Shown here: positions 661-37,292 of the stretch, piece after piece | How positions within the stretch are numbered: the first letter of the stretch is position 1 | Layout of the letters: each line of letters begins with the position of its first letter | Assembly: GCF_000412335.2 (NCBI RefSeq) | Contig: NZ_KE161030.1 | Coordinates: 1,552,031 to 1,616,030 of the forward strand | Direction of reading: 5' to 3' | DNA: 64,000 nt | Source: Cedecea davisae DSM 4568 | GTDB taxonomy: Bacteria; Pseudomonadota; Gammaproteobacteria; Enterobacterales; Enterobacteriaceae | Made by a program: the position numbers and the translations under genes | The notes under the pieces: generated by a model | What the model was told of the DNA's origin: nothing | What the model saw: only the letters and a program-made list of their open reading frames with translations | Databases searched by the model: none

Positions 661-3600
661 TTATGCGGCGGCGTTTTCCGCCAGGCTGTTCATGAAGTTA
701 CGCACCCATTCCATCCGCGTTTTGCGGTCGGCAAGTTCCTGAATAAACTTCAGACGGGTCGGCCCGTCGAGGCGGAAATGCTGCGGCTGCTTTTGCAGCA
801 GGCCAATCAGCCAGACCGGATCGACATGGTTTTTCTCGGCAAATTCAATCACACCGCCTTTCTCGTTACCTTCAATCTTACGCACGCCGAGCTTCTGCGC
901 CTGCTGGCGCAGGGCGGCGATGTCCAGCAGATTGCGGGCCGCGTCCGGCAGCAGGCCGAAGCGGTCGATAAGCTCAACCTTCAGCTCGTCCAGCTCGTGC
1001 TCGCCCTTCGCGCTGGCGATGCGCTTGTAAAACGACAGGCGGGTGTTCACGTCAGGAATAAAGTCGTCCGGCAGCAGGGCCGGCATGCGTAGCTCGACTT
1101 CCGTCTGGCTGTTGGTGAGATCTTCCAGCGACGGCTCACGGCCTTCTTTCAGGGCATCGACGGCGTTTTCCAGCAGTTCCATATACAGCGAGAAGCCGAT
1201 GGTTTCCATTTGCCCGCTCTGATCTTCGCCCAACAGCTCGCCCGCGCCGCGAATTTCCAGGTCGTGAGTCGCCAGAGCGAAGCCCGCCCCGAGATCTTCC
1301 AGAGAGGCTATTGCCTCCAGGCGTTTCTGTGCGTCGGTGGTCATCGCTTTAGGATGCGGCGTCAGCAGCCAGGCATAAGCCTGATGGTGCGAACGCCCCA
1401 CGCGGCCGCGCAGCTGGTGGAGCTGGGCGAGGCCAAAGTGGTCGGCTCGTTCGATGATAATCGTGTTGGCGGTCGGGATATCGATCCCGGTTTCGATGAT
1501 GGTGGTACACACCAGCACGTTAAAACGCTGGTGGTGGAAGTCGTTCATCACCCGTTCCAGCTCGCGCTCGCGCATCTGGCCGTGACCGATGGCAATGCGC
1601 GCTTCCGGTACCAGTTCGGCCAGTTTGTCGGCGGCTTTCTGAATATTTTCTACGTCATTGTAGAGGTAATAAACCTGCCCGCCGCGCAGCACTTCACGCA
1701 GAATAGCCTCACGCACCACGAGGCTGTCGTATTCGCGCACAAAGGTTTTTACCGCCAGGCGGCGAGCCGGAGGCGTGGCGATAATCGACAGGTCGCGCAT
1801 GCCGCTCATCGCCATATTCAGGGTTCGCGGAATTGGTGTTGCGGTCAGGGTCAGGATATCCACGTCGGCGCGCATCGCTTTGATGCGCTCTTTGTGGCGC
1901 ACCCCGAAGCGGTGCTCTTCGTCGACGATCAGCAAGCCCAGATCGCGCCACTTCACGTCGGCCTGTAACAGCTTGTGGGTGCCTATCAGAATATCAATCT
2001 TGCCTTCGCTTGCCTGCTCCAGGATCTGCGTTTGTTCTTTGGCGCTGCGGAAGCGGGAAAGCATTTCAATGCGCACCGGCCAGTTGGCAAAGCGGTCGCG
2101 GAAGTTGTCCAGATGCTGCTGCGCAAGCAGGGTGGTTGGCACCAGTACCGCGACCTGTTTGTTGTTCTCCACGGCCAGGAAGGCGGCTCGCATAGCGACT
2201 TCGGTTTTGCCGAAGCCCACGTCGCCGCAGACCAGCCTGTCCATCGCCAGCGGGCGGCACATGTCGCTCAGGACGGCATTGATTGCCTGAGCCTGGTCCG
2301 CCGTGGTTTCGAACGGGAAGCTGTCGCAGAACAGCTGATACTGCTCGCGGTCGTGCTTAAAGGCGAAGCCTTCTTTGGCGGCACGCATCGCATAAATGTC
2401 GAGCAGTTCGGCGGCAACGTCACGCACTTTTTCCGCGGCTTTCTGGCGCGCGCGGGACCAGGCATCGCTGCCCAGTTTATGCAGCGGTGCGTTATCGTCC
2501 GCGCCGCCAGCATAGCGGCTGATAAGATGCAGGGACGAGACCGGAACGTACAGCTTCGCGTCGCCCAGGTAGGTCAGCATCAGGTATTCAGCGGTGATCC
2601 CGCCAGCCTCCAGCGTCGTCAGCCCCGCATAGCGGCCAACGCCGTGCTCGAGGTGAACCACCGGCTGGCCTGGATGCAGCTCGGCCAGGTTGCGGATCAG
2701 GGTGTCCGGGTTAATGGTGCGGCGGCTGTCCTGGCGGCGACGGCTTACGCGCTCGCCCAGCAGGTCGCTCTCGCAGATCAGCGCCCGGTTGCGCAGGGTG
2801 TCAATAAAGCCGTGCTCGCTGGCGCCAATCATCAGGTAACGGCCGGTGCCTTCGGCTTCTTCAAGGCGATAAATGCGTTTTGGCGCAACTTTAATGCGCC
2901 CCAGCAGTTCGCCCAGCGCTTCACGGCGGCCTTCGCTCTCCACCGAGAAGACAACCGGCCCGGTAAAGGACTCAAGGAATTTACGCAGGCTGTCCAGCGG
3001 GGCTTTCTGCTGCGCCTGTACCGCCAGGTCCGGCAAGGTTTGATAACCCAGATTAACGTTGGCCGCTTTCTTCGCCAGAGAGTCGGTTTTGAGCTGAACA
3101 CGCGGCCAGGCTTTTAGCTCGCTAAACAGCGAGTCGGTCTTCAGCCATAAATCTTCCGGCGGCAGAAGAGGGCGCATCGGGTCAACGCCGCGATTCTCAA
3201 AGCGGGCGTTAGCGTCCAGCCAGAAGCGTTCGGCACTGGCTTCCAGGTCGCCGGTATTCACCAGCAGCGTGTTGGTCGGGAAGTAGCTGAACAGCGTCGG
3301 CAGCGGCTCGCTAAAGAACAGCGGCTGCCAATATTCGATACCCGCAGGTAAAGTGCCTTTGCTCACCTGCTGGTAGATGTGCTCCGCGTCGCGCTTAACT
3401 TCGAATTTATCCCGCCACTGGCTGCGGAACAGCTCGATGGCGTTTTTATCGGTCGGGAATTCATGGGCGGGCAGCAGGTTAATGGCTTCCACTTCTTCCA
3501 GCGTGCGCTGGGAGTCCACGTCGAACACGCGCAGGCTGTCGATTTCATCATCAAAGAAGTCAATGCGGTACGGCTGGGCGCTGCCCATCGGGTAGAGATC

Positions 3601-4107
3601 GAGCAGCGCGCCGCGGGTGGCGAACTCGCCGTGCTCCATTACCTGATCGACGCTGCGGTAGCCGGCCTGTTCCAGCTGAGCACGCAGATTATCACGCGAT
3701 AAGCGCTGGCCTTTTTTCATCACCAGGGCGTGGCCGTGCAGGTAGCTGTGAGGGCACACCCGCTGCATCAGCGTATTAACCGGCAGGATCAGCACGCCCC
3801 GCTGCATGGTCGGCAACTGGTAAAGGGTGGACAGGCGTGAAGAGATAATTTCCTGATGCGGAGAGAAGCTGTCGTACGGCAGCGTTTCCCAGTCCGCGAG
3901 GTTCATCACCAGGCTGTCGGTAAACTGGGAGACTTCGTCGTGCAGGCGCAGGGCGTTCTGCATATCCGGGGCAATCAGCACCACCGGGCCGCTATGGCGC
4001 TCGACGATTTCGGCCACCTCGGTGGCGCAGGCCGAACCGGTTAACTCTCCAAGCAGGCGCTGTTCAGCGGCTTTAGCGGGTAAGGAATAGCGATATTGTT
4101 CAGGCAT
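661..4107 (-). CDS. mfd: Transcription-repair coupling factor Mfd
   Basis: ATP-dependent translocase that pushes RNA polymerase stalled at DNA lesions off the template and recruits UvrA. The product is 1148 residues, the usual Mfd length. The N-terminal third is UvrB-like. The RNA-polymerase-interacting region follows at about 470-550 (LEHGVGRYAGL). The superfamily 2 motor has Walker A GDVGFGKTEVAMRAAF near residue 630, a DEEHRFGV box, TATPIPRTL and TTIIETGIDIPTANT. The C-terminal regulatory domain is complete. The gene has the surrounding chromosome's GC-rich composition. In E. coli ycfT lies directly upstream; here an AT-rich insertion with two peptidase genes separates them. Confidence 0.98.
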   Translation of the reverse strand: MPEQYRYSLPAKAAEQRLLGELTGSACATEVAEIVERHSGPVVLIAPDMQNALRLHDEVSQFTDSLVMNLADWETLPYDSFSPHQEIISSRLSTLYQLPTMQRGVLILPVNTLMQRVCPHSYLHGHALVMKKGQRLSRDNLRAQLEQAGYRSVDQVMEHGEFATRGALLDLYPMGSAQPYRIDFFDDEIDSLRVFDVDSQRTLEEVEAINLLPAHEFPTDKNAIELFRSQWRDKFEVKRDAEHIYQQVSKGTLPAGIEYWQPLFFSEPLPTLFSYFPTNTLLVNTGDLEASAERFWLDANARFENRGVDPMRPLLPPEDLWLKTDSLFSELKAWPRVQLKTDSLAKKAANVNLGYQTLPDLAVQAQQKAPLDSLRKFLESFTGPVVFSVESEGRREALGELLGRIKVAPKRIYRLEEAEGTGRYLMIGASEHGFIDTLRNRALICESDLLGERVSRRRQDSRRTINPDTLIRNLAELHPGQPVVHLEHGVGRYAGLTTLEAGGITAEYLMLTYLGDAKLYVPVSSLHLISRYAGGADDNAPLHKLGSDAWSRARQKAAEKVRDVAAELLDIYAMRAAKEGFAFKHDREQYQLFCDSFPFETTADQAQAINAVLSDMCRPLAMDRLVCGDVGFGKTEVAMRAAFLAVENNKQVAVLVPTTLLAQQHLDNFRDRFANWPVRIEMLSRFRSAKEQTQILEQASEGKIDILIGTHKLLQADVKWRDLGLLIVDEEHRFGVRHKERIKAMRADVDILTLTATPIPRTLNMAMSGMRDLSIIATPPARRLAVKTFVREYDSLVVREAILREVLRGGQVYYLYNDVENIQKAADKLAELVPEARIAIGHGQMRERELERVMNDFHHQRFNVLVCTTIIETGIDIPTANTIIIERADHFGLAQLHQLRGRVGRSHHQAYAWLLTPHPKAMTTDAQKRLEAIASLEDLGAGFALATHDLEIRGAGELLGEDQSGQMETIGFSLYMELLENAVDALKEGREPSLEDLTNSQTEVELRMPALLPDDFIPDVNTRLSFYKRIASAKGEHELDELKVELIDRFGLLPDAARNLLDIAALRQQAQKLGVRKIEGNEKGGVIEFAEKNHVDPVWLIGLLQKQPQHFRLDGPTRLKFIQELADRKTRMEWVRNFMNSLAENAAA

Positions 4108-4286
4108 AGAAAGCGTCAGGATCTCGTAGGTTATGCCGCAGCCAGGCCCGGCATAAGAGGTGCATTAAGTCATGAACAGATAGCGATTATTATCCTTGAT
4201 AGTAGAACATTAGCAACCATCGGAGGCGAAAAGAGAAGGCAAAAAGCTTGCTGAAAGGGTGTCTATTGAGCGGGCTAGCCGATGTG

Positions 4287-4321
4287 CCTTCCCTCTTTCA
4301 GGCACAAGATAAGAGGGAAGG
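4287..4321. terminator. Inverted repeat downstream of the second C10 peptidase gene
   Basis: CCTTCCCTCTT (4287-4297) pairs perfectly over 11 bp with AAGAGGGAAGG (4311-4321), with a 13-nt loop. It lies 15 bases past the stop of the 4337-6502 gene. There is no clear U tract on the minus strand, so terminator function is uncertain; it could equally be an RNA 3'-end stabiliser. An equivalent stem-loop follows the other copy. Confidence 0.5.
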
Positions 4322-4336
4322 GCGAACTTGTAAAAA

Positions 4337-6502
4337 CTACGCGGTGATCTCAATCTCAATCTGATTGATTATCGTGTTATTTGCACCGCTGAGCATTTCC
4401 GGAGGGGTGCTTTCTTCTTGATAAGGCCCCAATTCTTCGACCCTTAAAAATAGAGAGTAATGACCTGGATTAATGCCCTCGGGAATTTTACAATTAAGTG
4501 AAACCTCTTCCTCTTTAAATACTGGCATTATAAACATAGGATCATGAGCTATCTCATAAGTTTCACCCGCGGAATTGCTTATTACAGCATAAAGCTCAAA
4601 GTATATTGCATTACCTAACCCGTTCTCCATATCGAATAACAGGGATGAATGAACGACCAGTTCATCATTTGGTTGTAATACCGTTTCATCACTGCTGATA
4701 GATTTTACTAAATGCAGGTAATCATAAGGGTTTCTGTGCTGTACGATAAAATCAACCGGGTTAGAAATTTCATCGTTTTTAGGTTTCAAATAAAATGTAT
4801 CTTGTGAGTGTAATTGATTGTATAGCAAGTTGAATGTTAATTGTTCACTCTGCATAAATTCGGTCAGCTGTAAGGAAAATGTGGCTGTATACTCCCCTGC
4901 GCCATGAGTTAAAATAGAGGTTTTTTCTGTTTGATTATAATTGCTTGATTTATCATTAACCAATAATGTGATATCAATGACTTCATTTGGTTGCCGATCG
5001 TACCAAAATTTAACTGAAACCTCATTAAGCCCTGGGGAGTAATATGGTTTTGATGTGTCTATATTAGTGAGTAGGATAATATCTCCATAGACTACATCTT
5101 TATCTTTGTTTCGTATGTTATGTATAAATACCGTGCCGTCATTCGTGGGCAGAAGTTTACTTGTAGAAAAGTCAGAATTATCAGTGTCATCCTCTACAAA
5201 TGCCAGTAAATAGTCATTGTAGGGAGCTACAGCGCTAAAGTCTAATGTCATGGCGCATTTGTTTAAGCCTGAAGTATCAATATTGTATGTGCCAGAGCCC
5301 AGTTTATAAATCGCATTATAATATTTTCCTACAATATAGCAGCCAATATTTTTAGGTGCGGATATGCTGCTGGTAATTTCGAAATTGACATCGACAGGCT
5401 TGTTGGTAAATGCCTCTTCCGGTATCGTCGCATTACGGCTAATAACTAATTCATCGGAGATGTGTTTTTTTATTGTGATATCATAAGAAATTATCTGGTC
5501 AGCATCGTCTCTTAATGGTCGGTAATCTTTGCCATCTTCACTGTAAGTCAGGGCAATGCTCCGTTTTCCGTAGGTGGCATCAACGGGAATATCTATCTGC
5601 AATTCTATTTGAGCATTATTCCCTGCCAGCAGGGATAATTCTTGAGGGAGAGTCAGGAAAGAGCGCCGCACGCCTGCGCTATCGAATAAAACCGCTCTGT
5701 AATAGCCGGTAAAGTCCTTGCCTGGCGTTGAGACCTGAGCTTTAAGATGTGTGGAATTTCCGGGGAAGCCCTCAAGGCCACCGATATCCAGGTGTGATAT
5801 CAGCAACGTTTCTTCTTTTGCGGGTTGAATACCAATATAGAGTTTTCTTGCTTCGATACCTGATTTATCGAGTTCTTTCTCATACCACTCGCCATCCCAG
5901 CCATAGTTAAATGAAAAATAATCATCATCTGCATAGCCATCACAAACGACAGCATGGCCTGGGATCCTGACCATTATAACTCTGCCCAAATCCAGCTCTT
6001 CTCTGAGGAGTCGACTTATTTCCTGAATTGTATATCCTTGTTCTTCTTGTTTATACAGCACGATTTTTGTCAGGTTTTTGTCGTAGCCGAAATTGTTTAC
6101 CATTGCCTCAGCAAGACATCCTTCATTACCCGGTGAACCTGCATCAAAAGTAGTTTGGGCTGCGTACCCTGCATGGTATAAAAAAGTGGATGTTGCGTTT
6201 TTTTGTTCCTGTGAGCTGCCGTTAGTAAGATCATCCGGCATTAAGTCCCAGTGATATTCATAGCCATCAATATCCATTTCTGGCTGGAGCTCAGTGGTAA
6301 AGTATTCTGGTAAGGTACCGGTAGCAAATGGGGGATGATTATAGTATTTCATCACCTGCCCTCCTGCAATTCCAGCACATCCCATGGCGATGTATGACTG
6401 ATCGAACACTTCATTGTATGGGCGACCCTGACCCCATTCTGTAGTGGTGAGCGGCCCTACAATTAAATCTGATTTTTTTCTGTCAATGCGTTTTATTTTC
6501 AT
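4337..6502 (-). CDS. Streptopain-like (family C10) cysteine peptidase with C-terminal beta-rich extension, distal copy
   Basis: 721-residue protein whose first 205 residues match the mature catalytic domain of streptopain-family (C10) cysteine peptidases. Visible are PLTTTEWGQGRPYN with the oxyanion-hole Gln25, the nucleophile motif MGCAGIAGGQVMKYYNHP with Cys42, GHAVVCDGY with His183, and FNYGW with Asn199 and Trp202. Residues from about 245 to the end look like several successive beta-sandwich domains with no recognisable enzyme motif. No signal peptide, transmembrane segment or propeptide is seen; the catalytic domain begins within about 15 residues of the start. The gene is AT-rich compared with mfd and ycfT, which suggests acquisition. 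It is the second gene of a tandem pair with the neighbour starting at 8814. The substrate is unknown; the call rests on motifs. Confidence 0.8.
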   Translation of the reverse strand: MKIKRIDRKKSDLIVGPLTTTEWGQGRPYNEVFDQSYIAMGCAGIAGGQVMKYYNHPPFATGTLPEYFTTELQPEMDIDGYEYHWDLMPDDLTNGSSQEQKNATSTFLYHAGYAAQTTFDAGSPGNEGCLAEAMVNNFGYDKNLTKIVLYKQEEQGYTIQEISRLLREELDLGRVIMVRIPGHAVVCDGYADDDYFSFNYGWDGEWYEKELDKSGIEARKLYIGIQPAKEETLLISHLDIGGLEGFPGNSTHLKAQVSTPGKDFTGYYRAVLFDSAGVRRSFLTLPQELSLLAGNNAQIELQIDIPVDATYGKRSIALTYSEDGKDYRPLRDDADQIISYDITIKKHISDELVISRNATIPEEAFTNKPVDVNFEITSSISAPKNIGCYIVGKYYNAIYKLGSGTYNIDTSGLNKCAMTLDFSAVAPYNDYLLAFVEDDTDNSDFSTSKLLPTNDGTVFIHNIRNKDKDVVYGDIILLTNIDTSKPYYSPGLNEVSVKFWYDRQPNEVIDITLLVNDKSSNYNQTEKTSILTHGAGEYTATFSLQLTEFMQSEQLTFNLLYNQLHSQDTFYLKPKNDEISNPVDFIVQHRNPYDYLHLVKSISSDETVLQPNDELVVHSSLLFDMENGLGNAIYFELYAVISNSAGETYEIAHDPMFIMPVFKEEEVSLNCKIPEGINPGHYSLFLRVEELGPYQEESTPPEMLSGANNTIINQIEIEITA

Positions 6503-6595
6503 TTTTTAACGCCTTATATTTTCTTCGTGAATGAATTTCAGTCTTTTTTACAGGGATCTTGCTGAAATGGCATATATCACGCGGTTGGGCTGATG

Positions 6596-6635
6596 TCCCT
6601 TTCCTCGTTTCGGGTGAAAGAAAAGAGGAAAGGGA
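6596..6635. terminator. Inverted repeat between the two C10 peptidase genes
   Basis: TCCCTTTCCTC (6596-6606) pairs perfectly with GAGGAAAGGGA (6625-6635); the loop can form a further TTTC/GAAA pairing. It lies 13 bases past the stop of the 6649-8814 gene, matching the position of the stem-loop after the other copy. No U tract is obvious, so it may be only a partial terminator or a stability element within a two-gene transcript. Confidence 0.5.
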
Positions 6636-6648
6636 GGCTTTATAGAAG

Positions 6649-8814
6649 TTACGCGGTGATCTCAAGCTCAATCTGGCTGATGATTGTGTTATTTGCGCCG
6701 CTGAGCATTTCCGGAGGAGTGCTTTCAGCCTGGTAAGGTACCATCTCCTCGGCTCTTAAAAAGAGGGTATAACGGGCAGGAGCAATGCCCTCGGGAATTT
6801 TACAATTAAGTGAAACATCTTTTTCTTCGAGTGTATTTATCAAAAAGTCAGAGGCTTTACCTATATTATAAGTATCACCATCTGCATTACTTAATACCGC
6901 ATAAAGTTCAAGGTCTACAATGTTACCTACCCCGTTTTTCATATCGAATAGCAGGGATGAATGAACGGTTAGTTCATCATTTGGCCGTAATTCTTTTTTG
7001 TCACAATCAATAGATTTAACCAAATGCAGATAATCATAAGCATTTCTGTACTGTAGGATGAAATCAACAGGGTTGGAAATTTCATCGTTCTTAGGTTTCA
7101 AATAAAAAGTATATTCTTCCAGTGCTTTTTGGGATAGCAGGTTAAACGTTAATTTCTCACTCTGCATGAAGCCGCTAAATGGGATGTTAAAGGTGGCTGT
7201 ATACTCCCCTGCCTCCCCGACCAGTATGGTAGTTTCTAGTGATCTATTGTAGTTGCTTGATTTGTCATTTATTAATAATATAATTTTTATTACACCACCG
7301 ACTTGCTTATCACACCAAAATTTAAATGAAACTTTATTTGTGCCTGGGGTGTAAAATGGTTTTGATGTGTCTATGTTAGAAAGAAGAATAACATCGCCAT
7401 ACACTACATCTTTATCTTTAACACGTATGTTTTGTATGAATATTGTACCGTCATTTGTTGGCAGAAGTTTGCTGGTGGAAAAATCAGCATCATCAGCATC
7501 ATCCTCTACAAATGCCAGGAAATAGTCATTGTAGGGATCCACATTACTAAAATCTAATGTCATGGTGCATTTGTTTAAACCTGATGCATCAATATTGTAT
7601 GTGCCAGACCCCAGTTTATAAATCGAGTTATAATATTTTCCTACAATATAACAACCAATGTTTTTAGATGCAGATATGCTGCTGGTGATTTCGAAATTAA
7701 CATCGACAGGCCTGTTGAGAAATGCCTCTTCCGGTATTGTCGTATTACGGTTAATAATTAATTTATCGGAGATGTATTTTTTTATTGTGATATCATAAGC
7801 AATTATCTGGTCAGCGTCGTTTCTTAATGGCCGGTAATCTTTACCATCTTCACTGTAAGTCAGGGCTATTCTCCGTTTTCCGTAGGTGGCATCAACGGGA
7901 ATATCTATCTGCAATTCTATTTGAGCATTATTCCCTGCCAGCAGGGATAATTCTTGAGGAAGAGTAAGGAAGGAGCGCCGTACGCCTGCACTATCGAGCA
8001 AAACCACTCTGTAATAGCCGGCAAAGTCCTTGCCTGATGTTGAGACCTGCGCTTTAAGGCGGGTGGAATTTCCGGGGAAGCCCTCAAGGCTACCGATATC
8101 CAGGTGTGATATTAGTAACGTTTCATTTTTTGCCGGTTGAATACCAATATAGAGCCTTCTTGCCTCGATATCTGAACTGTCAAGTTTTTGCTCATGCCAT
8201 TCACCATCCCAGCCATAGTTAAATGAAAAATAATCGTCATCGGCATAACCATCACAAACGACAGCATGGCCGGGAATGGCTGTCATTATAACTCTGCCCA
8301 AATCCAGCTCCTCCCTGAGGAGTTTACTCACTTCCTGAATTGTATACCCTTGCTCTTCTTGTTTATACAGCACGATTTTTGTCAGGTTTTTGTCGTAGCC
8401 GAAATTGTTTACCATTGCCTCAGCAAGAAATTCTTCATTACCAGGTGAACCCGCATTAAAAGTGGTTTGAGCTGCATACCCTGCATGGTATAAAAAATTG
8501 GATGTTGCGTTTTTTTGTTCCTGTGAGCTGTCGTCAGTAAGAACATCTGGCATTAAGTCCCAGCGATATTCATAGCCGTCAATATCCATTTCTGGCTGGA
8601 GCTCAGTAGTAAAGTATTCTGGTAAGGTACCGGTAGCAAATGGGGGATGATTATAGTATTTCATCACCTGCCCCCCTGCAACGCCAGCACATCCCATGGC
8701 GATGTTTGGATTATCGAACACTTCGTTGTATGGGCGTTCCTGACCCCATTCTGTTGTGGTGAGCGGCCCTACAATTAAATCTGGTTTTTTTCTGTCAATG
8801 CGTTTTATTTTCAT
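6649..8814 (-). CDS. Streptopain-like (family C10) cysteine peptidase with C-terminal beta-rich extension, proximal copy
   Basis: Paralogue of the neighbouring gene with exactly the same length (721 residues). All proposed active-site residues are at the same positions: Gln25 (TEWGQERPYN), Cys42 (AMGCAGVAGGQVMKYYNH), His183 (IPGHAVVCDGY), Asn199 and Trp202 (FNYGWDGEW). By eye the copies agree at well over three quarters of positions. Differences concentrate around residues 490-640 of the beta-rich tail, and the catalytic half is the most alike. As in the other copy there is no signal peptide or propeptide. Translation from ATG 8814 opens with MKIKRIDRKK in both copies. Being upstream on the minus strand, it is probably the first gene of a pair. 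Whether it is secreted, intracellular or delivered by a secretion system cannot be read from the sequence. Confidence 0.8.
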   Translation of the reverse strand: MKIKRIDRKKPDLIVGPLTTTEWGQERPYNEVFDNPNIAMGCAGVAGGQVMKYYNHPPFATGTLPEYFTTELQPEMDIDGYEYRWDLMPDVLTDDSSQEQKNATSNFLYHAGYAAQTTFNAGSPGNEEFLAEAMVNNFGYDKNLTKIVLYKQEEQGYTIQEVSKLLREELDLGRVIMTAIPGHAVVCDGYADDDYFSFNYGWDGEWHEQKLDSSDIEARRLYIGIQPAKNETLLISHLDIGSLEGFPGNSTRLKAQVSTSGKDFAGYYRVVLLDSAGVRRSFLTLPQELSLLAGNNAQIELQIDIPVDATYGKRRIALTYSEDGKDYRPLRNDADQIIAYDITIKKYISDKLIINRNTTIPEEAFLNRPVDVNFEITSSISASKNIGCYIVGKYYNSIYKLGSGTYNIDASGLNKCTMTLDFSNVDPYNDYFLAFVEDDADDADFSTSKLLPTNDGTIFIQNIRVKDKDVVYGDVILLSNIDTSKPFYTPGTNKVSFKFWCDKQVGGVIKIILLINDKSSNYNRSLETTILVGEAGEYTATFNIPFSGFMQSEKLTFNLLSQKALEEYTFYLKPKNDEISNPVDFILQYRNAYDYLHLVKSIDCDKKELRPNDELTVHSSLLFDMKNGVGNIVDLELYAVLSNADGDTYNIGKASDFLINTLEEKDVSLNCKIPEGIAPARYTLFLRAEEMVPYQAESTPPEMLSGANNTIISQIELEITA

Positions 8815-9140
8815 AATATTAATACCTGATATTTTCTATGCGAAAAGATTTACTCTGTTTATTATTTACATGGCGGCGTGATTTTTAAGGTGTAAATAAT
8901 TTCCTGAGATGAATTTGATTGCGATCCTACTCCTCCTCAAAGCAATGTGAATATTAATATTGTTGTGCCGGTGCCATTTAATTCTTTATTTCAATAAATA
9001 TAAGGGCGGAGGGTTATTTTCTGAAGGGTTAAAAATATATCCTGGTTTATAAGAAGATCGTGCCAAAGAAAGAATTAATTGATTTAAAATCAAAATGATA
9101 CGTTTTAATTGCTGGCTTTTTTGTAAGTGGAGGGAATCGC
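8815..9140. other. AT-rich intergenic stretch upstream of the peptidase pair
   Basis: No convincing gene. The stretch is strongly AT-rich and must carry the promoter for the peptidase genes on the minus strand. I could not single out one -35/-10 pair with confidence because many AT hexamers fit. Confidence 0.4.
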
Positions 9141-9254
9141 ATGCATTGGTGTAAGTTGTCGATATTTATGGTTATTTTGGGAGGGTTGCCCTGCGCATTT
9201 TCAGAAGTGCAGGGCAAAATGCTGCCTTTAGACGACGCTAAGCCACGATTTTAG
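9141..9254 (+). CDS. Possible small secreted or membrane peptide (37 aa)
   Basis: ATG at 9141 is preceded by a good Shine-Dalgarno (GGAGGG, 9129-9134, spacing 6). The frame encodes 37 residues starting MHWCKLSIFMVILGGLPC, a short basic start followed by a hydrophobic core like a signal peptide, then a polar tail ending DDAKPRF. The last 17 bases overlap the 3' end of ycfT on the opposite strand, and the coding region includes the inverted repeat at 9186-9217. I recognise no family. The good ribosome site and hydrophobic profile make it worth listing, but an open frame this short can arise by chance. Confidence 0.3.
   Translation: MHWCKLSIFMVILGGLPCAFSEVQGKMLPLDDAKPRF
9186..9217 (-). terminator. 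Stem-loop after ycfT
   Basis: TTGCCCTGC (9186-9194) pairs over 9 bp with GCAGGGCAA (9209-9217), about 20 bases beyond the ycfT stop on the minus strand. No long U tract follows. Confidence 0.45.
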
Positions 9255-10296
9255 CCGGAGGGGAGAAGAACATATCCCCGAACAGCGCCACCGAAAGCTT
9301 GCGGAAGCCCAGCCCTGCCAGCGTGCAGATAGCCAGGCTGATAAACGGATAAACCAGCAGAATAGCCAGCAGCAGCGGGCCGGAGAAGCTGCCGTTATTG
9401 ATGCGGGCTATCATTATCAGGCTCATCGCCTCTATCAGGATGCGGTGCGTGGTGTAAATCGCGATGGTATTTGAGCCGACCACGTTAAGGAATGAGTTCG
9501 CGCCGGTTTCGCGCCAGCCGTCCAGCAGATAGAACACCCGCAGAATAACCACGATAGAGACCAGGGAAATCACCAGCGGGACGTTGACCAGGTAAAGCGC
9601 CATAGCGCCGCAGGCGACACCCGCGCAGGTAAATGGATGGCGCGAAAAACGGAAGTCTTTCATCCAGGCCATTAACAGCGGGCCAAACCATGCCCCGAGG
9701 CCGTAATAAACCATATTACGCACCACGCTGTTCAGCCCCCACCACGGCAGCGGCATAAAAGTAATAGCGATGTTTACCGCCATCAGCAGGATAAGTACCG
9801 GCATGCGGTAGCGGCGCAGCGCCTTAAAAATAACGAAGTAGACCAGCAGGGCGTACAGATACCACAGGCTGGTGCTTGCCTTCGCCATGCTGGCGGCAAA
9901 CTGCCAGAAGGTATCGGCGTAGGCGGCGTTGGAGGTTGGGTTGCGATCCAGATCCGGCGCCAGCCACTGGTTCAGATGGGTAAGGGCAACCCACTGAATC
10001 ATCCCCCAGAGCACCAGCACGTAGAAGATGCTCCACAGCCGTTTGTCCACGCTGTCACGCCATCTCACTTCGTGGATGTAGCGGGTTATCAAATAGCCGG
10101 AGATAAAGAAAAACACCGGCATACGGAACGGGGCAAGGTAGAGATTGAGGTACACCCAGAGTTTGGCGAGATACAAATTGAAGCCAGGCCCGAGCGTGGT
10201 GAGGTGAGGGTAGAAGGTGATAACCGAATGGTAGATAACCACCAGGCAAATACATAATCCTTTGATTTGATTAATCCATAGCTGCTTTTTCTTCAT
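9238..10296 (-). CDS. ycfT: Inner-membrane acyltransferase-3 family protein YcfT
   Basis: Multi-pass membrane protein of 352 residues in the acyltransferase-3 family, whose members move acyl groups onto extracytoplasmic sugars or lipids. The N-terminus has the family hallmark: MKKKQLWINQIKGLCICLVV followed by YHSVITFYP with the conserved His, then FFISGYL. About ten hydrophobic segments span the rest. The substrate in E. coli is not firmly known. It sits divergent from lolC as in E. coli, where mfd is its downstream neighbour; here the peptidase island lies between them. Nothing appears broken. Confidence 0.9.
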   Translation of the reverse strand: MKKKQLWINQIKGLCICLVVIYHSVITFYPHLTTLGPGFNLYLAKLWVYLNLYLAPFRMPVFFFISGYLITRYIHEVRWRDSVDKRLWSIFYVLVLWGMIQWVALTHLNQWLAPDLDRNPTSNAAYADTFWQFAASMAKASTSLWYLYALLVYFVIFKALRRYRMPVLILLMAVNIAITFMPLPWWGLNSVVRNMVYYGLGAWFGPLLMAWMKDFRFSRHPFTCAGVACGAMALYLVNVPLVISLVSIVVILRVFYLLDGWRETGANSFLNVVGSNTIAIYTTHRILIEAMSLIMIARINNGSFSGPLLLAILLVYPFISLAICTLAGLGFRKLSVALFGDMFFSPPAKIVA

Positions 10297-21241: not shown

Positions 21242-21357
21242 CTTGCTGAAGGAAACAGATAATAATAAATGGGTTGAGCTGGTTACCCTGACTACAGTTT
21301 TGCAATTATGATAAAGTGTTGGCCAACGCGTAATAGTAATTCAAATAGGGATTGGCA

Positions 21358-22266
21358 GTGAGGGACGATTTCTCAAACAAAATTAAACAGAGGTTGGCCG
21401 AACGCGTAGCATGGCTTTGCTCCAATCCCGATTGCAGAGTTGTGACTGTTGGGCCCCATACAGATCCTACAAAGCGAGTTAATGTTGGACAGGCATGCCA
21501 TATTGAAGCCGCATCTGAAGGTGGCCCCCGCTACAACAAGGAAATGCAAAAAGATCAAAGATGCTCTTTTGACAACGGTATTTGGCTTTGCTCTATCCAT
21601 GCAAAAGAAATTGATGTAGATCCAGACCGCTTCTCTGTAGAGCTTCTTCGTAAATGGAAGCTTACAGCTGAACAGTATGCGCTGAGTAAAGTAGGCAAAG
21701 CGAGATATGATGTATCTCAGGATGTCTTTACGGAAAATGTAAATCGCCATCGTGAACTTTTTTCAGGTATTCGTGATATTGAATATTTCAGTTTATATAG
21801 GGACTCAAATGATAAATGCTTCACTTTGCGCGGTGTTGGGCCTTTAAATATAATCGTAAAAGATCGTAGAATAGATATCTTTTTTAAAGATTTATTCAAT
21901 CCCATCAAATATAGAAATGATTCTTACATAGGATTAATATGCTTGCCAGTAAAGGAATTAATTGATTATGTAGTATTATCTCACGAGTTTGATGAAACAA
22001 TTGAGTCCTTTAATATGACATTTAACTTTAGTCCAAACTCGTTGAATGAAATGTATTTTTCGATCCACACGGACACGGTTAACGTTAATCCACACATGGA
22101 TGGTATTAGTTATTATGGCGATTACACAGTAGAGAAGGATGAATTAATAGATGATTTAAGTAGAGCTATACCTCCTTATCGGCAGGACATTTACCTTAAG
22201 ATTATTGTAGCAATGTACAACATTTACCGACGAATTGTAACATTCAAAACAGAAGGATTTACTTAA
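21358..22266 (+). CDS. HNH-type zinc-finger/nuclease-domain protein of unknown role
   Basis: About 302 residues. The N-terminal 110 residues follow a conserved HNH-like pattern: CSNPDC, then NVGQACHIEAASEGGPRYN, then NGIWLCSIHAKEIDVD and LLRKWKLTAEQYA. Similar domains sit at the N-terminus of many bacterial proteins linked to defence loci, but the usual paired His near the second zinc knuckle reads SIHA here. Residues 120-302 are AT-rich in code and match nothing I know. I prefer GTG at 21358 because AGGG (21347-21350) gives a 7-base spacing; a TTG at 21352 is too close. It has its own composition, flanking repeats and no homologue between pepT and roxA in E. coli, so it is probably acquired. 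The actual enzymatic activity is not shown. Confidence 0.7.
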   Translation: MRDDFSNKIKQRLAERVAWLCSNPDCRVVTVGPHTDPTKRVNVGQACHIEAASEGGPRYNKEMQKDQRCSFDNGIWLCSIHAKEIDVDPDRFSVELLRKWKLTAEQYALSKVGKARYDVSQDVFTENVNRHRELFSGIRDIEYFSLYRDSNDKCFTLRGVGPLNIIVKDRRIDIFFKDLFNPIKYRNDSYIGLICLPVKELIDYVVLSHEFDETIESFNMTFNFSPNSLNEMYFSIHTDTVNVNPHMDGISYYGDYTVEKDELIDDLSRAIPPYRQDIYLKIIVAMYNIYRRIVTFKTEGFT

Positions 22267-22489
22267 TTTTTTGTGAACTGTAAGCCACGCGAAGCATTTA
22301 ATCAAAGTTAAATATTTTATAATTTACTTTTGTCTTCAAAAAAATAGATTGAGCCGTGAACTAATACTTTGCAGATCTTATATACTATATTATATACCGC
22401 AATGGTATATATCTTATCTATGAAAGTGCAACGGATGGCCAGATCCTCGCCGATCTTAGCATGGTAGTATTTACTAATACATCAAGAAG

Positions 22490-22523
22490 CGAACTTCCGC
22501 TTCTTGCTCACAGCGGACCTTCA
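22490..22523. repeat. Short dispersed repeat, copy 1
   Basis: Starts CGAACTTCCGC and ends GCTCACAGCGGACCTTCA. It is repeated with a few changes at 23691-23723. The two copies bracket the DUF2726 gene and the truncated HNH gene. Confidence 0.65.
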
Positions 22524-22536
22524 CCCCAGTAAACTC

Positions 22537-22560
22537 GTCCGCTCAGTGCCAGGAGCGGAC
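22537..22560. repeat. 24-bp hairpin repeat, right copy
   Basis: GTCCGCT (22537-22543) pairs perfectly with AGCGGAC (22554-22560). This is the better-paired partner of the copy at 21218-21241. Confidence 0.65.
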
Positions 22561-22597
22561 GAAGCCCAGAGAGTGGTGATGGTACGGCGGTATTGTA

Positions 22598-22614
22598 GGC
22601 GTTTTACCGAACGG
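22598..22614. repeat. 17-bp repeat, copy 1
   Basis: GGCGTTTTACCGAACGG is present identically at 23307-23323, in the same orientation, just beyond each end of the DUF2726 gene. Confidence 0.65.
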
Positions 22615-22686
22615 AGGGTAAGGACGTAAAAAAACCGCCTGGCGGGGGTCAATGCGATAAATTTCCCATCAACTATTAATTATTAG

Positions 22687-23250
22687 TCATAAATAATTAA
22701 ATCTAATATCTTCCAAGAAATAGTCCAATTTTTTTTCGTCACAAGCATCTTTATTAGTTATACGAAAAATTTTAATACCTGCATTCTCTAATGCCTTGTT
22801 TTTGAACTCATCCTTTCTTGCGGAATATGATTTTTTGTGTTCTTCCCCATCCACTTCGATTACACAGAGAGGATATCCAGTTTTATTTGAAATAACGAAA
22901 TCAACACTAAGTAAGTTTATTAAATTGAAAATGGCATACTTTTCTTCCTCGCCTTGAAAGAACGTAGGGAAATCTATTTTAAACTGAGGAATTTTAGAGC
23001 TATCAATATCTACCAACCGGATAAGCTGAACCTGGCTAAATATAAGATAGTTAGGGAGTTTCTTAATGGCCGCATCGAGAAAATCACGCTCTATTTTAGA
23101 CAAAAAAATCGTTCTCTTTGTCGGTAATGTTTCAACCAGTTTTGTCGGCAAGTCACTATACAAATTTTCGTATTCTTCCCACTCAGCCTCTGAAGATGGT
23201 GTCAATGATATAGCAATACTTTTTCCATTAATTTTGGGATTGAAAGCCAT
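22687..23250 (-). CDS. DUF2726-type putative nuclease-fold protein
   Basis: 187 residues ending in a DUF2726-like domain, which is related in pattern to the PD-(D/E)XK and Vsr-type nuclease fold. Visible are the acidic beta-strand motif VDFVISNKTGYPLCVIEVDG, then EHKKSYSARKDEFKNKALENAGI, then IKIFRIT. The VDF Asp and the E-V-D of VIEVDG sit where the metal-binding residues of this fold usually lie. The N-terminal 60 residues are not recognised. The start at ATG 23250 has GAGG upstream at good spacing. The gene is AT-rich and flanked by identical 17-bp repeats. Nuclease activity is inferred from the family, not shown. Confidence 0.65.
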   Translation of the reverse strand: MAFNPKINGKSIAISLTPSSEAEWEEYENLYSDLPTKLVETLPTKRTIFLSKIERDFLDAAIKKLPNYLIFSQVQLIRLVDIDSSKIPQFKIDFPTFFQGEEEKYAIFNLINLLSVDFVISNKTGYPLCVIEVDGEEHKKSYSARKDEFKNKALENAGIKIFRITNKDACDEKKLDYFLEDIRFNYL

Positions 23251-23306
23251 TATGCTTGCCTCTGATTTTATTGTTAATAGTCTAACTTATATATATAATA
23301 AATATT

Positions 23307-23323
23307 GGCGTTTTACCGAACGG
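23307..23323. repeat. 17-bp repeat, copy 2
   Basis: Identical to the copy at 22598-22614. It abuts the point where the HNH-like gene at 23341 stops abruptly, so it may mark a recombination junction. Confidence 0.65.
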
Positions 23324-23340
23324 GGGCGTACTGGTAAACA

Positions 23341-23562
23341 TCAGAGTACGGAAATTAGCTCAAACTCCTCAGCAGGCCATTTTTCGCGGTGGGACTCAGT
23401 ATCACCATGAAGAATGACATGTACTATTTGAGCTATATACTTATCACCACCGATCTCTGCTGGGAAAAGTGGCTTAAGACAATCTGGTTTCTGACAATGA
23501 CCTACCGATGCCGAAATCAACCGCAATTTGGTTTCGTTTGGAATACTTTTCCGAATAGCCAT
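23341..23562 (-). pseudogene. Truncated HNH-domain gene
   Basis: From ATG 23562 the frame reads MAIRKSIPNETKLRLISASV, then HCQKPDC and KYIAQIVHVILHGD, the first half of a common HNH domain (CxxxxC then I-x-x-I-x-H). It then degenerates to ESHREKWPAEEF and stops after about 73 residues, before the second half (the expected LLCPxCH region). The stop lies close to the 17-bp repeat. It is best read as a remnant of a second HNH gene; a functional short protein is less likely. Confidence 0.6.
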
Positions 23563-24182
23563 AATTGATTCCAAGGGCTTGGTTGAAAGAATGTAAATAT
23601 ACTGTACTACAGCTGAAATTGCATACAATTGACACGCCTCATATTGCACTGAGATTTTAATCAAGTTTTATTCCATGTTGATAACAATTTCGAACTTCCG
23701 CACCTCGCTCACAGCGGACCTTCAGTTCTGTTATACCATCGGCTGGTTGCTCAAAGTACATCTCGATCCCCACTCTAAATAATCAAAACAAACAATATCA
23801 ATAACAAATAACCCCATCTACCAATTCTGGTAGCCAAGATCTCTGTAAAGCCCGGTGCCCAAGAGGGAGGTACAAGCCGGAATCATAGCAAACCCAGCAA
23901 GAATATATCCGTCACTAAAATATCGCTAAAGAGACTAGGGTCCTTTTTCAGAAGTAGAAATCACGCCAGAAATATAAGCAGCAAGAATTTGGAATCAATC
24001 TCGCAATTATCAAATAAACCGAAAAAGGAATAAGGAAATGTAACGAGGTTTCCAGTTATCACGTTTTCGGGATCTCCCTCGAATTTTCAAGGTTTCCAAT
24101 AATTTAGCAATCCCATACTGTTGACTTATCCAGTGATAAGTAAGAGGGTGATAGGGCAATTTAAGGTAGTGAATATAGAGTC
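23563..24182. other. AT-rich stretch without recognisable genes
   Basis: Apart from the repeat copy at 23691-23723 I see no gene. A 71-codon minus-strand frame (24010-24225) has an unlikely composition and no ribosome site I trust. Confidence 0.45.
23691..23723. repeat. Short dispersed repeat, copy 2
   Basis: CGAACTTCCGC, then CTCACAGCGGACCTTCA; pairs with the copy at 22490-22523. Confidence 0.65.
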
Positions 24183-33991: not shown

Positions 33992-34013
33992 TCAGCCTCG
34001 CTGGTGATGTGAC

Positions 34014-34045
34014 AACGGGAACCTGATGGTTCCCGTTTTTTATTA
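34014..34045 (+). terminator. Intrinsic terminator after icd
   Basis: AACGGGAACC (34014-34023) and GGTTCCCGTT (34028-34037) form a perfect 10-bp stem with TGAT loop, followed by TTTTATTATT. Confidence 0.9.
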
Positions 34046-34141
34046 TTAGCTTTCGAACGGTTATCAAAACTCTTGCGTAAAAAGCCCCATTTCTGCCCGG
34101 ACTGGATCCTCCATACACCCTGCTTTGAATACAGGCGAAGG

Positions 34142-34615
34142 TTAGCCAGATTTTTGTGTATTAGTATAAATATCAGGCCTGGTGATGGCCCATGCATAGT
34201 TTTCCCGGTTGACCGGCTCGTAGCCAAACTTTTCATAAAGCCAGGGAGCGGTGGTTGTGAATAACAAAATTCTGCGAAGTTGCTCAAAAACAGGATGATT
34301 ATGTATGCATTCCATAACCCATCTTCCAAGCCCTTCACCCTGGTATTCTTCGAGAACATAAACGTCGCAAAGGTAAGCGAACGTAGCATAATCCGTTATA
34401 AGACGAGCGAAGCCTATCTGTGTTTCATTATGATAAACACCGAAGTTCAGGCTGTTTTCAATTGATGTGCCGACAGTCGTCAGGTCAATACCTTTCGCCC
34501 AGGTGGACCTGGTCAGGTAGCTATGGATAGCCTGCAAGTCCAGCTTTTCTCTGTCTGTACTTACCAGATAGTGATGCTTACGCCATTCGAGCTTCTTTGA
34601 AATACTCACGTTCAC
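34142..34615 (-). CDS. GNAT-family N-acetyltransferase
   Basis: 157 residues. The acetyl-CoA-binding motif A is visible as VYVLEEYQGEGLGRWVMECI, followed by the motif-B region WLYEKFGYEPV. The N-terminal strand and the DVYVLEEY beta-bulge fit the GNAT fold. The acceptor substrate cannot be read from the sequence. It stands alone between icd and a divergent second GNAT gene. Confidence 0.82.
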   Translation of the reverse strand: MNVSISKKLEWRKHHYLVSTDREKLDLQAIHSYLTRSTWAKGIDLTTVGTSIENSLNFGVYHNETQIGFARLITDYATFAYLCDVYVLEEYQGEGLGRWVMECIHNHPVFEQLRRILLFTTTAPWLYEKFGYEPVNRENYAWAITRPDIYTNTQKSG

Positions 34616-34791
34616 TCCTGCTTATAAGGGTGGGGACCTAACTTATCATTCACATGAAAATACAAACATAATGGACTGCTGAATACCCTGGAAGTGATAA
34701 TTGCCATGGCGCTAAGGAAAAATGTATGCGAAAGATAAAGTGTAAAGTTGAGGGAGCAGGATGTGCTCCAGCAGAAGATAAGGATAAATAA

Positions 34792-35274
34792 ATGATACTG
34801 CTCCGCTCAATGCGTGAGGATGAATATCCTGCTTATTTAGCGTATTTCATTCCGGATTATGCACAGGAAATTGCCTCAAACTATCCGCTTTCCGGCCAGG
34901 ATTCTACTGCAAAAGCGGAACAGGAAATAGCCATGCAGCTCCCCAATGGCGTCAATACTCCCGGGCAAGTTCTCCTGTGTTTAATTGACCCGATAGACAG
35001 CGCTGGCAGGCATGTCGGCTACCTTTGGTACAAACCCGACTTAGTTCAACGTAGCGTATTTATCTACGATTTTTACATCTTCAATGCTTACCAGGGGCAA
35101 GGCCTGGCTAAAAAGGCTCTCCGCGCTTTTGAGCTGGATTTGCAGGAACAGGGGTTTGAGCAGATAAAACTCCGTGTTGCCGCAGATAACGTCCGTGCCC
35201 GGCATGTTTACGAAACGACGGGTTTTGGCGTCACGGGCATAAACATGAGTAAAGCGATAAAGCCTTCGGAATAG
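34792..35274 (+). CDS. GNAT-family N-acetyltransferase
   Basis: 160 residues with the GNAT core FYIFNAYQGQGLAKKALRAF (acetyl-CoA site QGQGLA) and the C-terminal NVRARHVYETTGFGV. ATAAGGATAA upstream gives the ribosome site. It is divergent from the other acetyltransferase at 34142-34615 and is not closely similar to it. Substrate unknown. Confidence 0.82.
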   Translation: MILLRSMREDEYPAYLAYFIPDYAQEIASNYPLSGQDSTAKAEQEIAMQLPNGVNTPGQVLLCLIDPIDSAGRHVGYLWYKPDLVQRSVFIYDFYIFNAYQGQGLAKKALRAFELDLQEQGFEQIKLRVAADNVRARHVYETTGFGVTGINMSKAIKPSE

Positions 35275-35339
35275 AATTTACCTATATTCAAGAATACTAT
35301 GATGAGCTTGCGAAAATTATCCGACGAAACGAGGCTTTC

Positions 35340-35541
35340 ATGTTAGTCACCCCCACAACGCGGCTCATCATTCGCTCATTTGAAGACAAAGATGCCGCGC
35401 CGCTGTTTGCCGATAATAGCGATGAACCAGATCCGAATACCTGGGGGGGCATTTCAATTTGCTATATGAAGGGCAGGGCTTTGCAAAGGTCGGCAGACTT
35501 AATATAAATAACTCGGTCTGTCAGCGCGGAAGGGCATAAAT
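35340..35541 (+). pseudogene. GNAT acetyltransferase remnant with internal deletion and frameshift
   Basis: ATG at 35340 opens MLVTPTTRLIIRSFEDKDAA, the usual beginning of RimJ-like acetyltransferases, for about 40 codons. Around 35440 the reading shifts frame, and the +2 frame continues HFNLLYEGQGFAKVGRLNIN, typical of the C-terminal end of the same family. The central catalytic part is missing. The remnant overlaps the 3' end of the diguanylate cyclase gene on the other strand. Confidence 0.65.
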
Positions 35542-36420
35542 AATACAATCTCTCCCGTTCCTTTTGGCTTGATAAAGCGCTTCGTCTGCGGCGGTAAGAA
35601 TGTGTGAGGAGGAATGATGGTTCTTTTTCACAGCAACGCCAATGCTCAGGGTAATGGTTTCGCCCCTAGCATCTTTGCAGGATATTGATGATTTTATTTT
35701 ATTGATAAACTCTTCCGCGTCTGTGTTGTTAAAGATGATAACCGCGAACTCCTCTCCTCCGGAGCGGGAAATGAAAATGTCTTCGGAGATGAATGCCCCT
35801 AATTGCAATCCCGTATCTTTAAGAACTTTATCACCAAAATCATGGCCGTAAGTATCGTTTATGTTCTTGAAATGATCGATGTCGATAATGCAAAGGGTGC
35901 CACTTTTCGGCTCTAATTCTCTTAACTTTATATTAAGGTGCCTTCTGTTTGGCAGCCCCGTTAACTCATCAGTTAATGATAATTTGACTGCGGCTTTGTA
36001 ATTCCGATTTATGTATTTGACGAAGTTATTGAAGGACAGCGTGATAAGAAATATAGCCGGGGCATACAGAAGCGCTGCAACCAGCGATGCCGAATCACGG
36101 TCTATCACTCCCAGCCCACCGGCAAGGGACACAAGACTTGAATTTAACAAAAGAAACAAACTGATCCTAAAAATCGCAAGGTGCTTTTCTTTTGATTGAA
36201 TGTTAAATGACTTTCTTATGATCCATGTCAGAATTAAAACGGTGCAGGTATTAATAAGGAAATAGAAGTTAACTTTGGACGGGTTACCTATGGTAAACGC
36301 CAGAATAAAAATTATCGTCATTGTAAAACAGACGAATGCGATAATCATTCGATAGAGCAATCCGCGTGCCGACCCGGCCCCTTCAATAAGCTTGTCGTGT
36401 ATTTTAAAGTTCATTTTCAT
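35521..36420 (-). CDS. Membrane-bound diguanylate cyclase (GGDEF)
   Basis: 299 residues. About five or six hydrophobic segments in residues 20-135 are followed by a GGDEF domain: DELTGLPNRRHLN, IDIDHFKNINDTYGHDFGD and active-site RSGGEEFAVI. The GGEEF variant is catalytically competent in known enzymes, so it probably makes cyclic-di-GMP. The inhibitory RxxD site expected just upstream of GGEEF reads SEDI, so product inhibition through that site is unlikely. What the membrane sensor responds to is unknown. Confidence 0.88.
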   Translation of the reverse strand: MKMNFKIHDKLIEGAGSARGLLYRMIIAFVCFTMTIIFILAFTIGNPSKVNFYFLINTCTVLILTWIIRKSFNIQSKEKHLAIFRISLFLLLNSSLVSLAGGLGVIDRDSASLVAALLYAPAIFLITLSFNNFVKYINRNYKAAVKLSLTDELTGLPNRRHLNIKLRELEPKSGTLCIIDIDHFKNINDTYGHDFGDKVLKDTGLQLGAFISEDIFISRSGGEEFAVIIFNNTDAEEFINKIKSSISCKDARGETITLSIGVAVKKNHHSSSHILTAADEALYQAKRNGRDCIIYALPR

Positions 36421-36518
36421 TCCTTTGCTAACTTCGGTGCATAAGTGCTAATTATTCAGGCAGCCGGGGATATAATATTATATTGTTTTAGCCGCTGGCA
36501 AATGAGCACCCTGGAACA

Positions 36519-37196: not shown

Positions 37197-37216
37197 AACC
37201 AGACTCCAACTCAAGA

Positions 37217-37240: not shown

Positions 37241-37292
37241 ACATCAGTTAAACCAACGCTTAAATCCCGGTTTTCTTTTCATACCCAAATGT

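What the first reader, a model, noticed from the sequence alone, without database searches (positions are those of the whole stretch)
4337..8814. Tandem streptopain-like peptidases in an enterobacterial core neighbourhood
Two 721-residue genes, exactly the same length and offset by 2312 bases, carry complete C10 motifs (Gln25, Cys42, His183, Asn199). I know C10 peptidases from streptococci and Bacteroidetes, not as a standard part of the mfd-ycfT region. The pair is AT-rich and breaks conserved synteny, so it is a recent gain kept in two copies. This is the best candidate here for an undescribed system.
Basis: partly seen in the sequence, partly recalled or inferred. Interest (0 to 1): 0.85.

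Follow-up and report, generated by a model that had tools for sequence, protein, structure and literature searches.

The report
Leaderless streptopain-like protease gene pair
An enterobacterium carries two side-by-side copies of a cysteine protease of the streptopain family that lack the usual export signal and self-blocking segment, in a chromosomal spot where its relatives carry nothing or a sugar operon; the enzyme family is known, but this stripped form in gut-type bacteria appears undescribed.

Summary
Both 721-aa genes (4337-6502 and 6649-8814, minus strand) encode peptidase C10 proteins (Pfam E about 1e-35) with Q25, C42, H183 and N199 in both. A weak model of the catalytic domain matches only streptopain and interpain among solved structures (13 of 13 at E<=0.001). 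C10 is rare here: 2 of 392 sampled Enterobacteriaceae genomes, both of the window's genus.

Added here: the proteins start at the mature catalytic domain, with no recognisable leader (hydropathy only) and no I69 propeptide. The segment before the catalytic His is 4-6 residues shorter than in Bacteroidota relatives. A 500-residue tail is shared only with a congener's single copy and a C10 protein on Serratia plasmids that carry Tc genes. The mfd-ycfT gap is variable: bare in 3 of 7 congeners, melRAB in 4 of 7. The duplication looks old: dS in the 3' part (0.83) is as high as between species, while the 5' part looks homogenised. Purifying selection holds (dN/dS about 0.25).

Best reading: an acquired pair of proteolytic effectors made without Sec export. 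Delivery and target are inferred, not shown. New variant of a known kind.

The parts
6649..8814 (-). copy A, C10 peptidase with long tail, 721 aa, leaderless
   Evidence: ORF; PF01640 E 1.0e-35; motif residues
4337..6502 (-). copy B, C10 peptidase with long tail, 721 aa, 81% identical to copy A
   Evidence: ORF; PF01640 E 1.2e-35; motif residues; identity
8200..8748 (-). catalytic domain of copy A (residues 23-205): Q25, C42, H183, N199
5888..6436 (-). catalytic domain of copy B (residues 23-205)
6652..8163 (-). about 500-residue tail of copy A, strands only in a low-confidence model, no Pfam match above cut-off and no PDB match
4340..5851 (-). tail of copy B
6596..6635 (-). hairpin after copy A, -22.2 kcal/mol for the 51-nt window 6590-6640, z -5.4; no U tract and not called by the terminator scan, so function uncertain
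4286..4323 (-). similar hairpin after copy B, -20.0 kcal/mol for the 51-nt window 4280-4330, z -3.9; likewise not called by the terminator scan
8815..9237 (-). 423-base spacer between ycfT and copy A; best local alignments to the bare site only 11-22 columns
661..4107 (-). mfd, left neighbour (core gene)
   Evidence: tblastn to congeners; gene name recalled
9238..10296 (-). ycfT-like acyltransferase (PF01757), right neighbour
   Evidence: gene name recalled

Best explanation
The pair encodes active-type C10 (streptopain-family) cysteine proteases of a rare enterobacterial subgroup. The proteins are made directly in mature form: translation starts 24 residues before the conserved Gln, with no recognisable Sec signal and no I69 propeptide, and a 500-residue tail follows. 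They were acquired into the mfd-ycfT gap, a site that other species of the genus use for melRAB. Most likely they are proteolytic effectors that leave the cell by a route needing no Sec signal (for example one of the genome's two type VI systems) and cut proteins of a eukaryotic host, predator or rival, with the tail acting in binding or delivery. Damage to the producer would be limited by narrow specificity, since the segment before the catalytic His is shortened. Shown here: family, intact motifs, missing leader (by hydropathy) and propeptide, shared tail, variable site, purifying selection. Inferred: catalysis, export route, target, role of the tail and of the shortened segment.
For: Family. 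No leader in any of three frames over 300 bases upstream of either copy, and no hydrophobic N-terminus. Shortening before the catalytic His in winA, winB, G389 and the Serratia protein against the Bacteroidota rows. Tail shared with G389 (z 37-45) and with Serratia (window copies z 5.4-5.5, G389 z 10.0), not with the Bacteroidia tail (z -1.3 to 0.1). The four enterobacterial rows group together (93/94 support). On three of three inspected Serratia plasmids the relative lies between fimbrial genes and a gene annotated Tc toxin subunit A or neuraminidase-like, and the G389 copy lies near a GH46 chitosanase and a reprolysin-type protease. Purifying selection. Two TssK-family matches in the genome. 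Papain-like peptidases are described as domains of toxins delivered into host cells (PMC3482391, one passage).
Against: No delivery gene lies beside the pair: the TssK matches are about 0.2 and 1 Mb away, and the family also rings in the E. coli control, so it is common. No T6SS, T3SS or T1SS signal was tested for. The five Serratia plasmids may count as one event, since PMC10758657 argues a single ancestor for that island. Proteases of this kind are said to need a propeptide for folding and restraint (PMC3462683 passages), so a form without it might not fold or might act only inside the cell. No PADLOC or PHROG match helps either way.
Confidence: 0.4

Rival explanations
1. Intracellular proteases. 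The proteins stay in the cytoplasm and cut a bacterial or phage protein, for example as a stress or defence protease held inactive by the tail until triggered.
For: No recognisable signal peptide and no propeptide. 7 and 6 cysteines in the two copies (pairing untested) could suit a reducing site. Accessory location between core genes, at a variable site.
Against: No PADLOC or PHROG match. No partner or inhibitor-sized gene in the gap. Relatives sit beside fimbrial and Tc-type genes or exoenzymes rather than defence genes, although a GIY-YIG protein lies near the G389 copy.
Confidence: 0.25
2. Exported degradative exoenzymes that lost their leader and now work only on release by lysis, i.e. scavenging proteases under weak constraint.
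For: Three of four C10 proteins found elsewhere in the order have what I read as a leader and then no room for a propeptide, so propeptide loss alone is not unusual. The Serratia relative keeps a weak I69-like segment but no leader, a plausible intermediate.
Against: The leaderless state is kept in three diverged members (window pair, G389, Serratia), perhaps after one ancestral loss, and selection acts on both window copies; both argue that the leaderless form is functional.
Confidence: 0.2
3. Catalytically dead or decaying remnants kept by chance.
For: Unusual N-terminus and shortened segment before the catalytic His.
Against: Both 721-codon frames intact, motifs intact, dN/dS about 0.25, and random placement of the same changes would create about 10 stops.
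Confidence: 0.05
4. Binding or inhibitor proteins that use the C10 fold without proteolysis.
For: A C10 paralogue without the catalytic Cys is described in Bacteroides thetaiotaomicron (BtpZ; PMC3462683 passages).
Against: Cys, His, Asn and Gln are all kept in both window copies, G389 and Serratia.
Confidence: 0.1

Closest known systems
Streptopain (SpeB, Streptococcus pyogenes), peptidase family C10
   Same: Catalytic domain and motif order; with interpain the only significant PDB match of the model.
   Different: SpeB is secreted as a zymogen (PMC8745752 passages). The window proteins have no recognisable leader, no propeptide, and a 500-aa tail.
Interpain A (Prevotella intermedia)
   Same: Best sequence match in the PDB, E 2.1e-13 over residues 13-206.
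   Different: In 3bb7, named a prointerpain A fragment, 79 residues precede the match, while the window protein has 8 before it. The PDB match ends at residue 206; the tail is not matched.
Bfp/Btp C10 proteases of Bacteroides
   Same: C10 domain; some lie on mobile elements or in clusters (PMC2873492, PMC3462683 passages).
   Different: Those have predicted lipoprotein leaders and, for Btp, propeptides, and some sit beside staphostatin-like inhibitor genes. The window gap holds no inhibitor-sized ORF outside the pair.
C10 family peptidase of Serratia proteamaculans/entomophila plasmids (WP_241391771 and kin)
   Same: 28% identity over residues 18-327, homologous tail (z 5.4-5.5 with the window copies), no leader, shortened segment before His.
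   Different: Keeps an I69-like N-terminal segment (18.2 bits, below the 25-bit cut-off), and Trp202 is His. [quoted passage not shown]
G389 C10 protein (unnamed congener)
   Same: 721 aa, about 30% identity over the full length, no leader.
   Different: Single copy, different chromosomal place near GH46 and reprolysin-type genes.

Membership tests
Peptidase family C10 (streptopain) | Profile match above the curated cut-off over the whole catalytic domain | tested here: met
   124 bits vs 26, profile 1-189 of 194, both copies
Peptidase family C10 (streptopain) | Catalytic Cys and His with oxyanion Gln and orienting Asn, in order | tested here: met
   Q25, C42, H183, N199 in both; aligned with interpain and Bacteroidota rows. 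Roles of the residues are recalled.
Peptidase family C10 (streptopain) | Papain-like C10 fold with the catalytic residues together | tested here: inconclusive
   Domain model weak (pLDDT 54.5, pTM 0.57); 13 of 13 PDB matches at E<=0.001 are C10; no coordinates to measure distances
Secreted zymogen C10 (as SpeB, Bfp, Btp) | N-terminal signal peptide | tested here: not met
   Hydropathy only, no signal-peptide predictor; no leader in any of three upstream frames
Secreted zymogen C10 (as SpeB, Bfp, Btp) | N-terminal propeptide (I69-like) | tested here: not met
   Catalytic match begins at residue 23; no I69 hit at E<=1 in the window proteins. No I69 gene found in the genome, but that search rang in no control either, so it shows nothing
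Secreted zymogen C10 (as SpeB, Bfp, Btp) | Linked small inhibitor gene | tested here: not met
   Outside the two genes no ORF above 62 aa between mfd and ycfT; no distant-homology test of shorter ORFs
Peptidase family C10 (streptopain) | Cysteine-peptidase activity | not testable with these tools
   needs purified protein
Known anti-phage defence families (PADLOC) | Profile match | tested here: not met
   0 families at E<=0.01 for both copies

The most novel reading that the evidence does not exclude
A previously unrecognised enterobacterial effector family: leaderless, propeptide-free C10 proteases with a private 500-residue tail that is itself a delivery or receptor-binding module, spread horizontally among Enterobacterales (the chromosomal pair here, a congener's exoenzyme-rich region, Serratia Tc plasmids), exported without Sec, and diversified in the tail while conversion keeps the catalytic half uniform.
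Probability: 0.25. Interest if true: 0.65.

Novelty: new variant of a known kind. Interest (0 to 1): 0.42.

Why it matters
The C10 proteases that I could read about are exported zymogens of streptococci and Bacteroidota. A form without leader and propeptide, kept in two copies by selection in an enterobacterium, asks how a cell makes a mature papain-like protease in its own cytoplasm, and where it sends it. A relative on Serratia insect-disease-type plasmids sits beside Tc-type genes, where the paper that I read notes only a predicted type 9 secretion domain, so the family gives a concrete, testable candidate factor there too.

Tried and rejected
Full-length structure: mean pLDDT 42.5, tail uninterpretable; not used for fold search. 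Domain structure: weak (five models 36-54.5 pLDDT) but matches C10 only. Genome contigs by peptide patterns: 5 loci, all Bacteroidota by their titles or lineage. Viral contigs for more relatives: 4 scans, none. Phage records: 2 distant hits to the catalytic part only. E. coli genomes: none in near or distant mode. NCBIfam: no family. PHROGs and PADLOC: none. Promoter and terminator scans of 4050-9300: 17 against 15.8 expected and 5 against 4.7 expected, i.e. chance level, and neither hairpin of the parts list was called. Tail profile against the PDB: none at E<=1. Pfam on 6 tails: none for copy A's tail, and for others only hits of E 0.007 or worse, one of them Ig-like. Tail profile in 365 genomes of the order: own genome only. 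I69 in the own genome: none, but the control also rang nowhere. Papers whose passages I opened without finding these proteins: PMC8528098, PMC12890329, PMC9455582, PMC11297309, PMC12096733, PMC5664417 (there SpeB is agmatinase), PMC3482391. Considered and rejected: misannotated start with a hidden leader; pseudogene; prophage cargo (no tRNA in the window, no PHROG match, no phage match of the tail).

Full report
OBSERVATION. Two ORFs of 721 codons lie head to tail on the minus strand, copy A at 6649-8814 and copy B at 4337-6502. Both match Peptidase_C10 at about 1e-35 over residues 23-205. They are 81% identical, and Q25, C42, H183, N199 and W202 are the same in both. The best sequence matches of copy A among solved structures are interpain A (2.1e-13) and streptopain (2.3e-10). 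An AlphaFold2 model of residues 1-230 of copy A from eight sequences is weak (pLDDT 54.5, pTM 0.57). Even so, all 13 PDB matches at E<=0.001 are streptopain or interpain, and the next is at E 2.1. I could not measure the Cys-His-Asn geometry because no coordinates are given. The full-length model failed (pLDDT 42.5).

ANATOMY. The proteins begin MKIKRIDRKK and reach the conserved W-G-Q at residues 23-25. There is no hydrophobic N-terminus (best 12-residue hydropathy from the first 40 start positions 1.12 and 1.32, against 2.55 and 2.11 in two leader-bearing C10 proteins), and no leader in any of three frames for 300 bases upstream. No signal-peptide program was available. The I69 propeptide is missing. 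The segment before the catalytic His is 4-6 residues shorter than in the Bacteroidota rows, and the same shortening is seen in G389 and the Serratia protein (alignment); in the pairwise match to interpain the gap there is 3 residues. A tail of about 500 residues follows. It has no Pfam match above cut-off and no PDB match, and what secondary structure the poor model gives there is mostly strand. The gap holds no other ORF above 62 aa outside the two genes. Each gene is followed by a similar strong hairpin (-22.2 and -20.0 kcal/mol, z -5.4 and -3.9) without a T tract.

DISTRIBUTION. Peptidase_C10 was found in 2 of 392 Enterobacteriaceae genomes sampled, both in the window's unnamed genus: the own genome (two copies) and G389 (one). 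In the genus, 2 of 8 genomes have it. A profile of four enterobacterial proteins found 5 of 394 genomes of the order (own plus four of another family, f8) and 1 of 369 of the class (own only). The four f8 proteins are 437-550 aa C10 enzymes with N-termini that I read as leaders; in three of the four the catalytic domain starts at residue 33-41, leaving no room for a propeptide. A pattern scan of genome contigs gave five further loci, all Bacteroidota. Plasmid records gave 10 with a match: 5 Serratia and 5 of Prevotella, Segatella, Parabacteroides and Phocaeicola. In a 14-row tree, the window pair, G389 and Serratia form one side of a branch (93/94, not starred); the window pair plus G389 is starred (98/96). 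Long branches make the Serratia placement unsure. The tail supports the grouping: global-alignment z against 300 shuffles is 37-45 between the window copies and G389, 5.4-5.5 between the window copies and Serratia and 10.0 between G389 and Serratia, but -1.3 to 0.1 with a Bacteroidia C10 tail. The tail profile found nothing besides the own genome in 365 genomes of the order (G389 was not among the matches, presumably not drawn).

CONTEXTS. G389 carries its copy between cydAB-like genes and an inositol-phosphatase-like gene (names judged by eye), with a GH46 chitosanase, an SH3 protein, a GIY-YIG protein and an M12 reprolysin close by. On the three of five Serratia plasmids inspected, the C10 gene lies 3' of fimbrial genes and an EAL gene and 5' of an IS3 element, a second EAL gene, holin and lysozyme genes and then a gene annotated Tc toxin subunit A (one plasmid) or neuraminidase-like (two). 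PMC10758657 (section 2.2 read whole, other passages seen; [quoted passage not shown] By position the C10 gene fits that description; this matching is my inference. The adjacency therefore counts as one event. The Serratia protein keeps a weak I69-like segment (18.2 bits, below the 25-bit cut-off) but no leader.

THE SITE. ycfT was found in 8 of 8 genomes of the genus and in 15 of 59 relatives, the genus included; the other 44 were not examined for this gap. In 3 of 7 other congeners (L018, L019, L022) mfd follows ycfT within 200 bp (about 175 bp after its stop), and likewise in five other genera (L025-L029). In the other 4 congeners the gap holds melB, an alpha-galactosidase and melR (families were run on one, L034, and the other three read alike by ORF length and sequence start). 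The two remaining loci, L030 and L031, are weak acyltransferase matches (33% and 29% identity) without mfd in the stretch held and were not counted. The mfd-proximal sequence of the window aligns with the bare site; the ycfT-proximal spacer does not. The gap is thus a variable site. No tRNA was found in the window, and I saw no phage or transposase gene in the gap.

AGE AND SELECTION. The two copies differ at 327 of 2163 nucleotides and 136 of 721 residues. Placing the same changes at random gives 217 +/- 7 residue differences and about 10 stops. dN/dS is 0.25 overall, 0.23 in residues 1-210 and 0.25 in the rest. dS is 0.24 in residues 1-210, 0.33 in 211-460 and 0.83 in 461-721. Synonymous changes cluster towards the 3' part: 0 of 5000 permutations reach the difference across codon 440 (a break chosen after seeing the data) and 0 of 5000 the variance between 30-codon blocks, but the longest identical run is not significant (p 0.13). 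For comparison, dS between the window's species and congeners is 0.70-0.91 for ycfT and 0.55-0.67 for the first 400 codons of mfd. So the 3' parts look as diverged as the species are, and the 5' parts look homogenised by conversion. Differing constraint or composition along the gene is an alternative that I cannot exclude.

MECHANISM. The family is secure and the chemistry is very likely. What is odd is the production form. SpeB and the Bacteroides enzymes are described as exported zymogens (PMC8745752, PMC3462683, PMC2873492; passages). Here nothing that I can recognise marks the protein for Sec export or holds it inactive. I favour non-Sec delivery to an outside target, because of the Serratia and G389 contexts and two TssK matches in the genome (common, since the E. 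coli control rings too), at 0.4. An intracellular role is next at 0.25, and release by lysis as a scavenging enzyme is at 0.2. None of the delivery steps is shown.

LITERATURE. Searches for C10 peptidase with Enterobacter (0 papers), streptopain with Enterobacterales (0), 'C10 family peptidase' (4), a six-term Serratia/pADAP search (20 listed of 43), a six-term SpeB/Serratia/insect search (10) and a Cedecea/Kluyvera/C10 search (8 listed of 64) listed no paper that, from its listing or the passages opened, describes these proteins in Enterobacteriaceae. Only open-licence papers are held and most listed papers were not opened, so absence from print is not established.

VERDICT. A real, rare and well-preserved variant of peptidase family C10. 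Not a new system on present evidence.

Noticed in passing
window 21352-22266 (+), with 22687-23250 (-) and 23341-23664 (-): AT-rich block (37.7% GC at 22001-24000) between a pepT-like and a roxA-like gene (names recalled): a protein matching PADLOC PDC-M68A (4e-23) and endonuclease effectors though no Pfam family, and a DUF2726 protein with weaker nuclease-type matches. Looks like a small defence island.
   Followed up: partly
L032-L035, mfd-ycfT gap of G192, G071, G389, G1119: melRAB sits in the gap where the window has the C10 pair: one chromosomal site, three states in one genus.
   Followed up: yes
L003 9533-11833 and 11961-14264: A Bacteroidia MAG also carries two C10 genes in tandem (766 and 767 aa, with leader- and propeptide-like N-termini), so tandem C10 duplication recurs.
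   Followed up: no
L011 5107-6339 (-) and 11351-12208 (+): Around the G389 C10 gene lie an M12 reprolysin-type metalloprotease and a GH46 chitosanase, suggesting an exoenzyme region.
   Followed up: no
L009 11692-14133, L041 12048-14543: The Serratia plasmid C10 protein has His in place of the Trp after the catalytic Asn (NFGHGG where the window has NYGWDG), which may alter activity.
   Followed up: no
window 39257-40366 (+): A 369-aa NAD(P)-dependent thioester-reductase-like protein (judged by eye, no family search) beside a lower-GC stretch (45-48% at 34001-40000).
   Followed up: no
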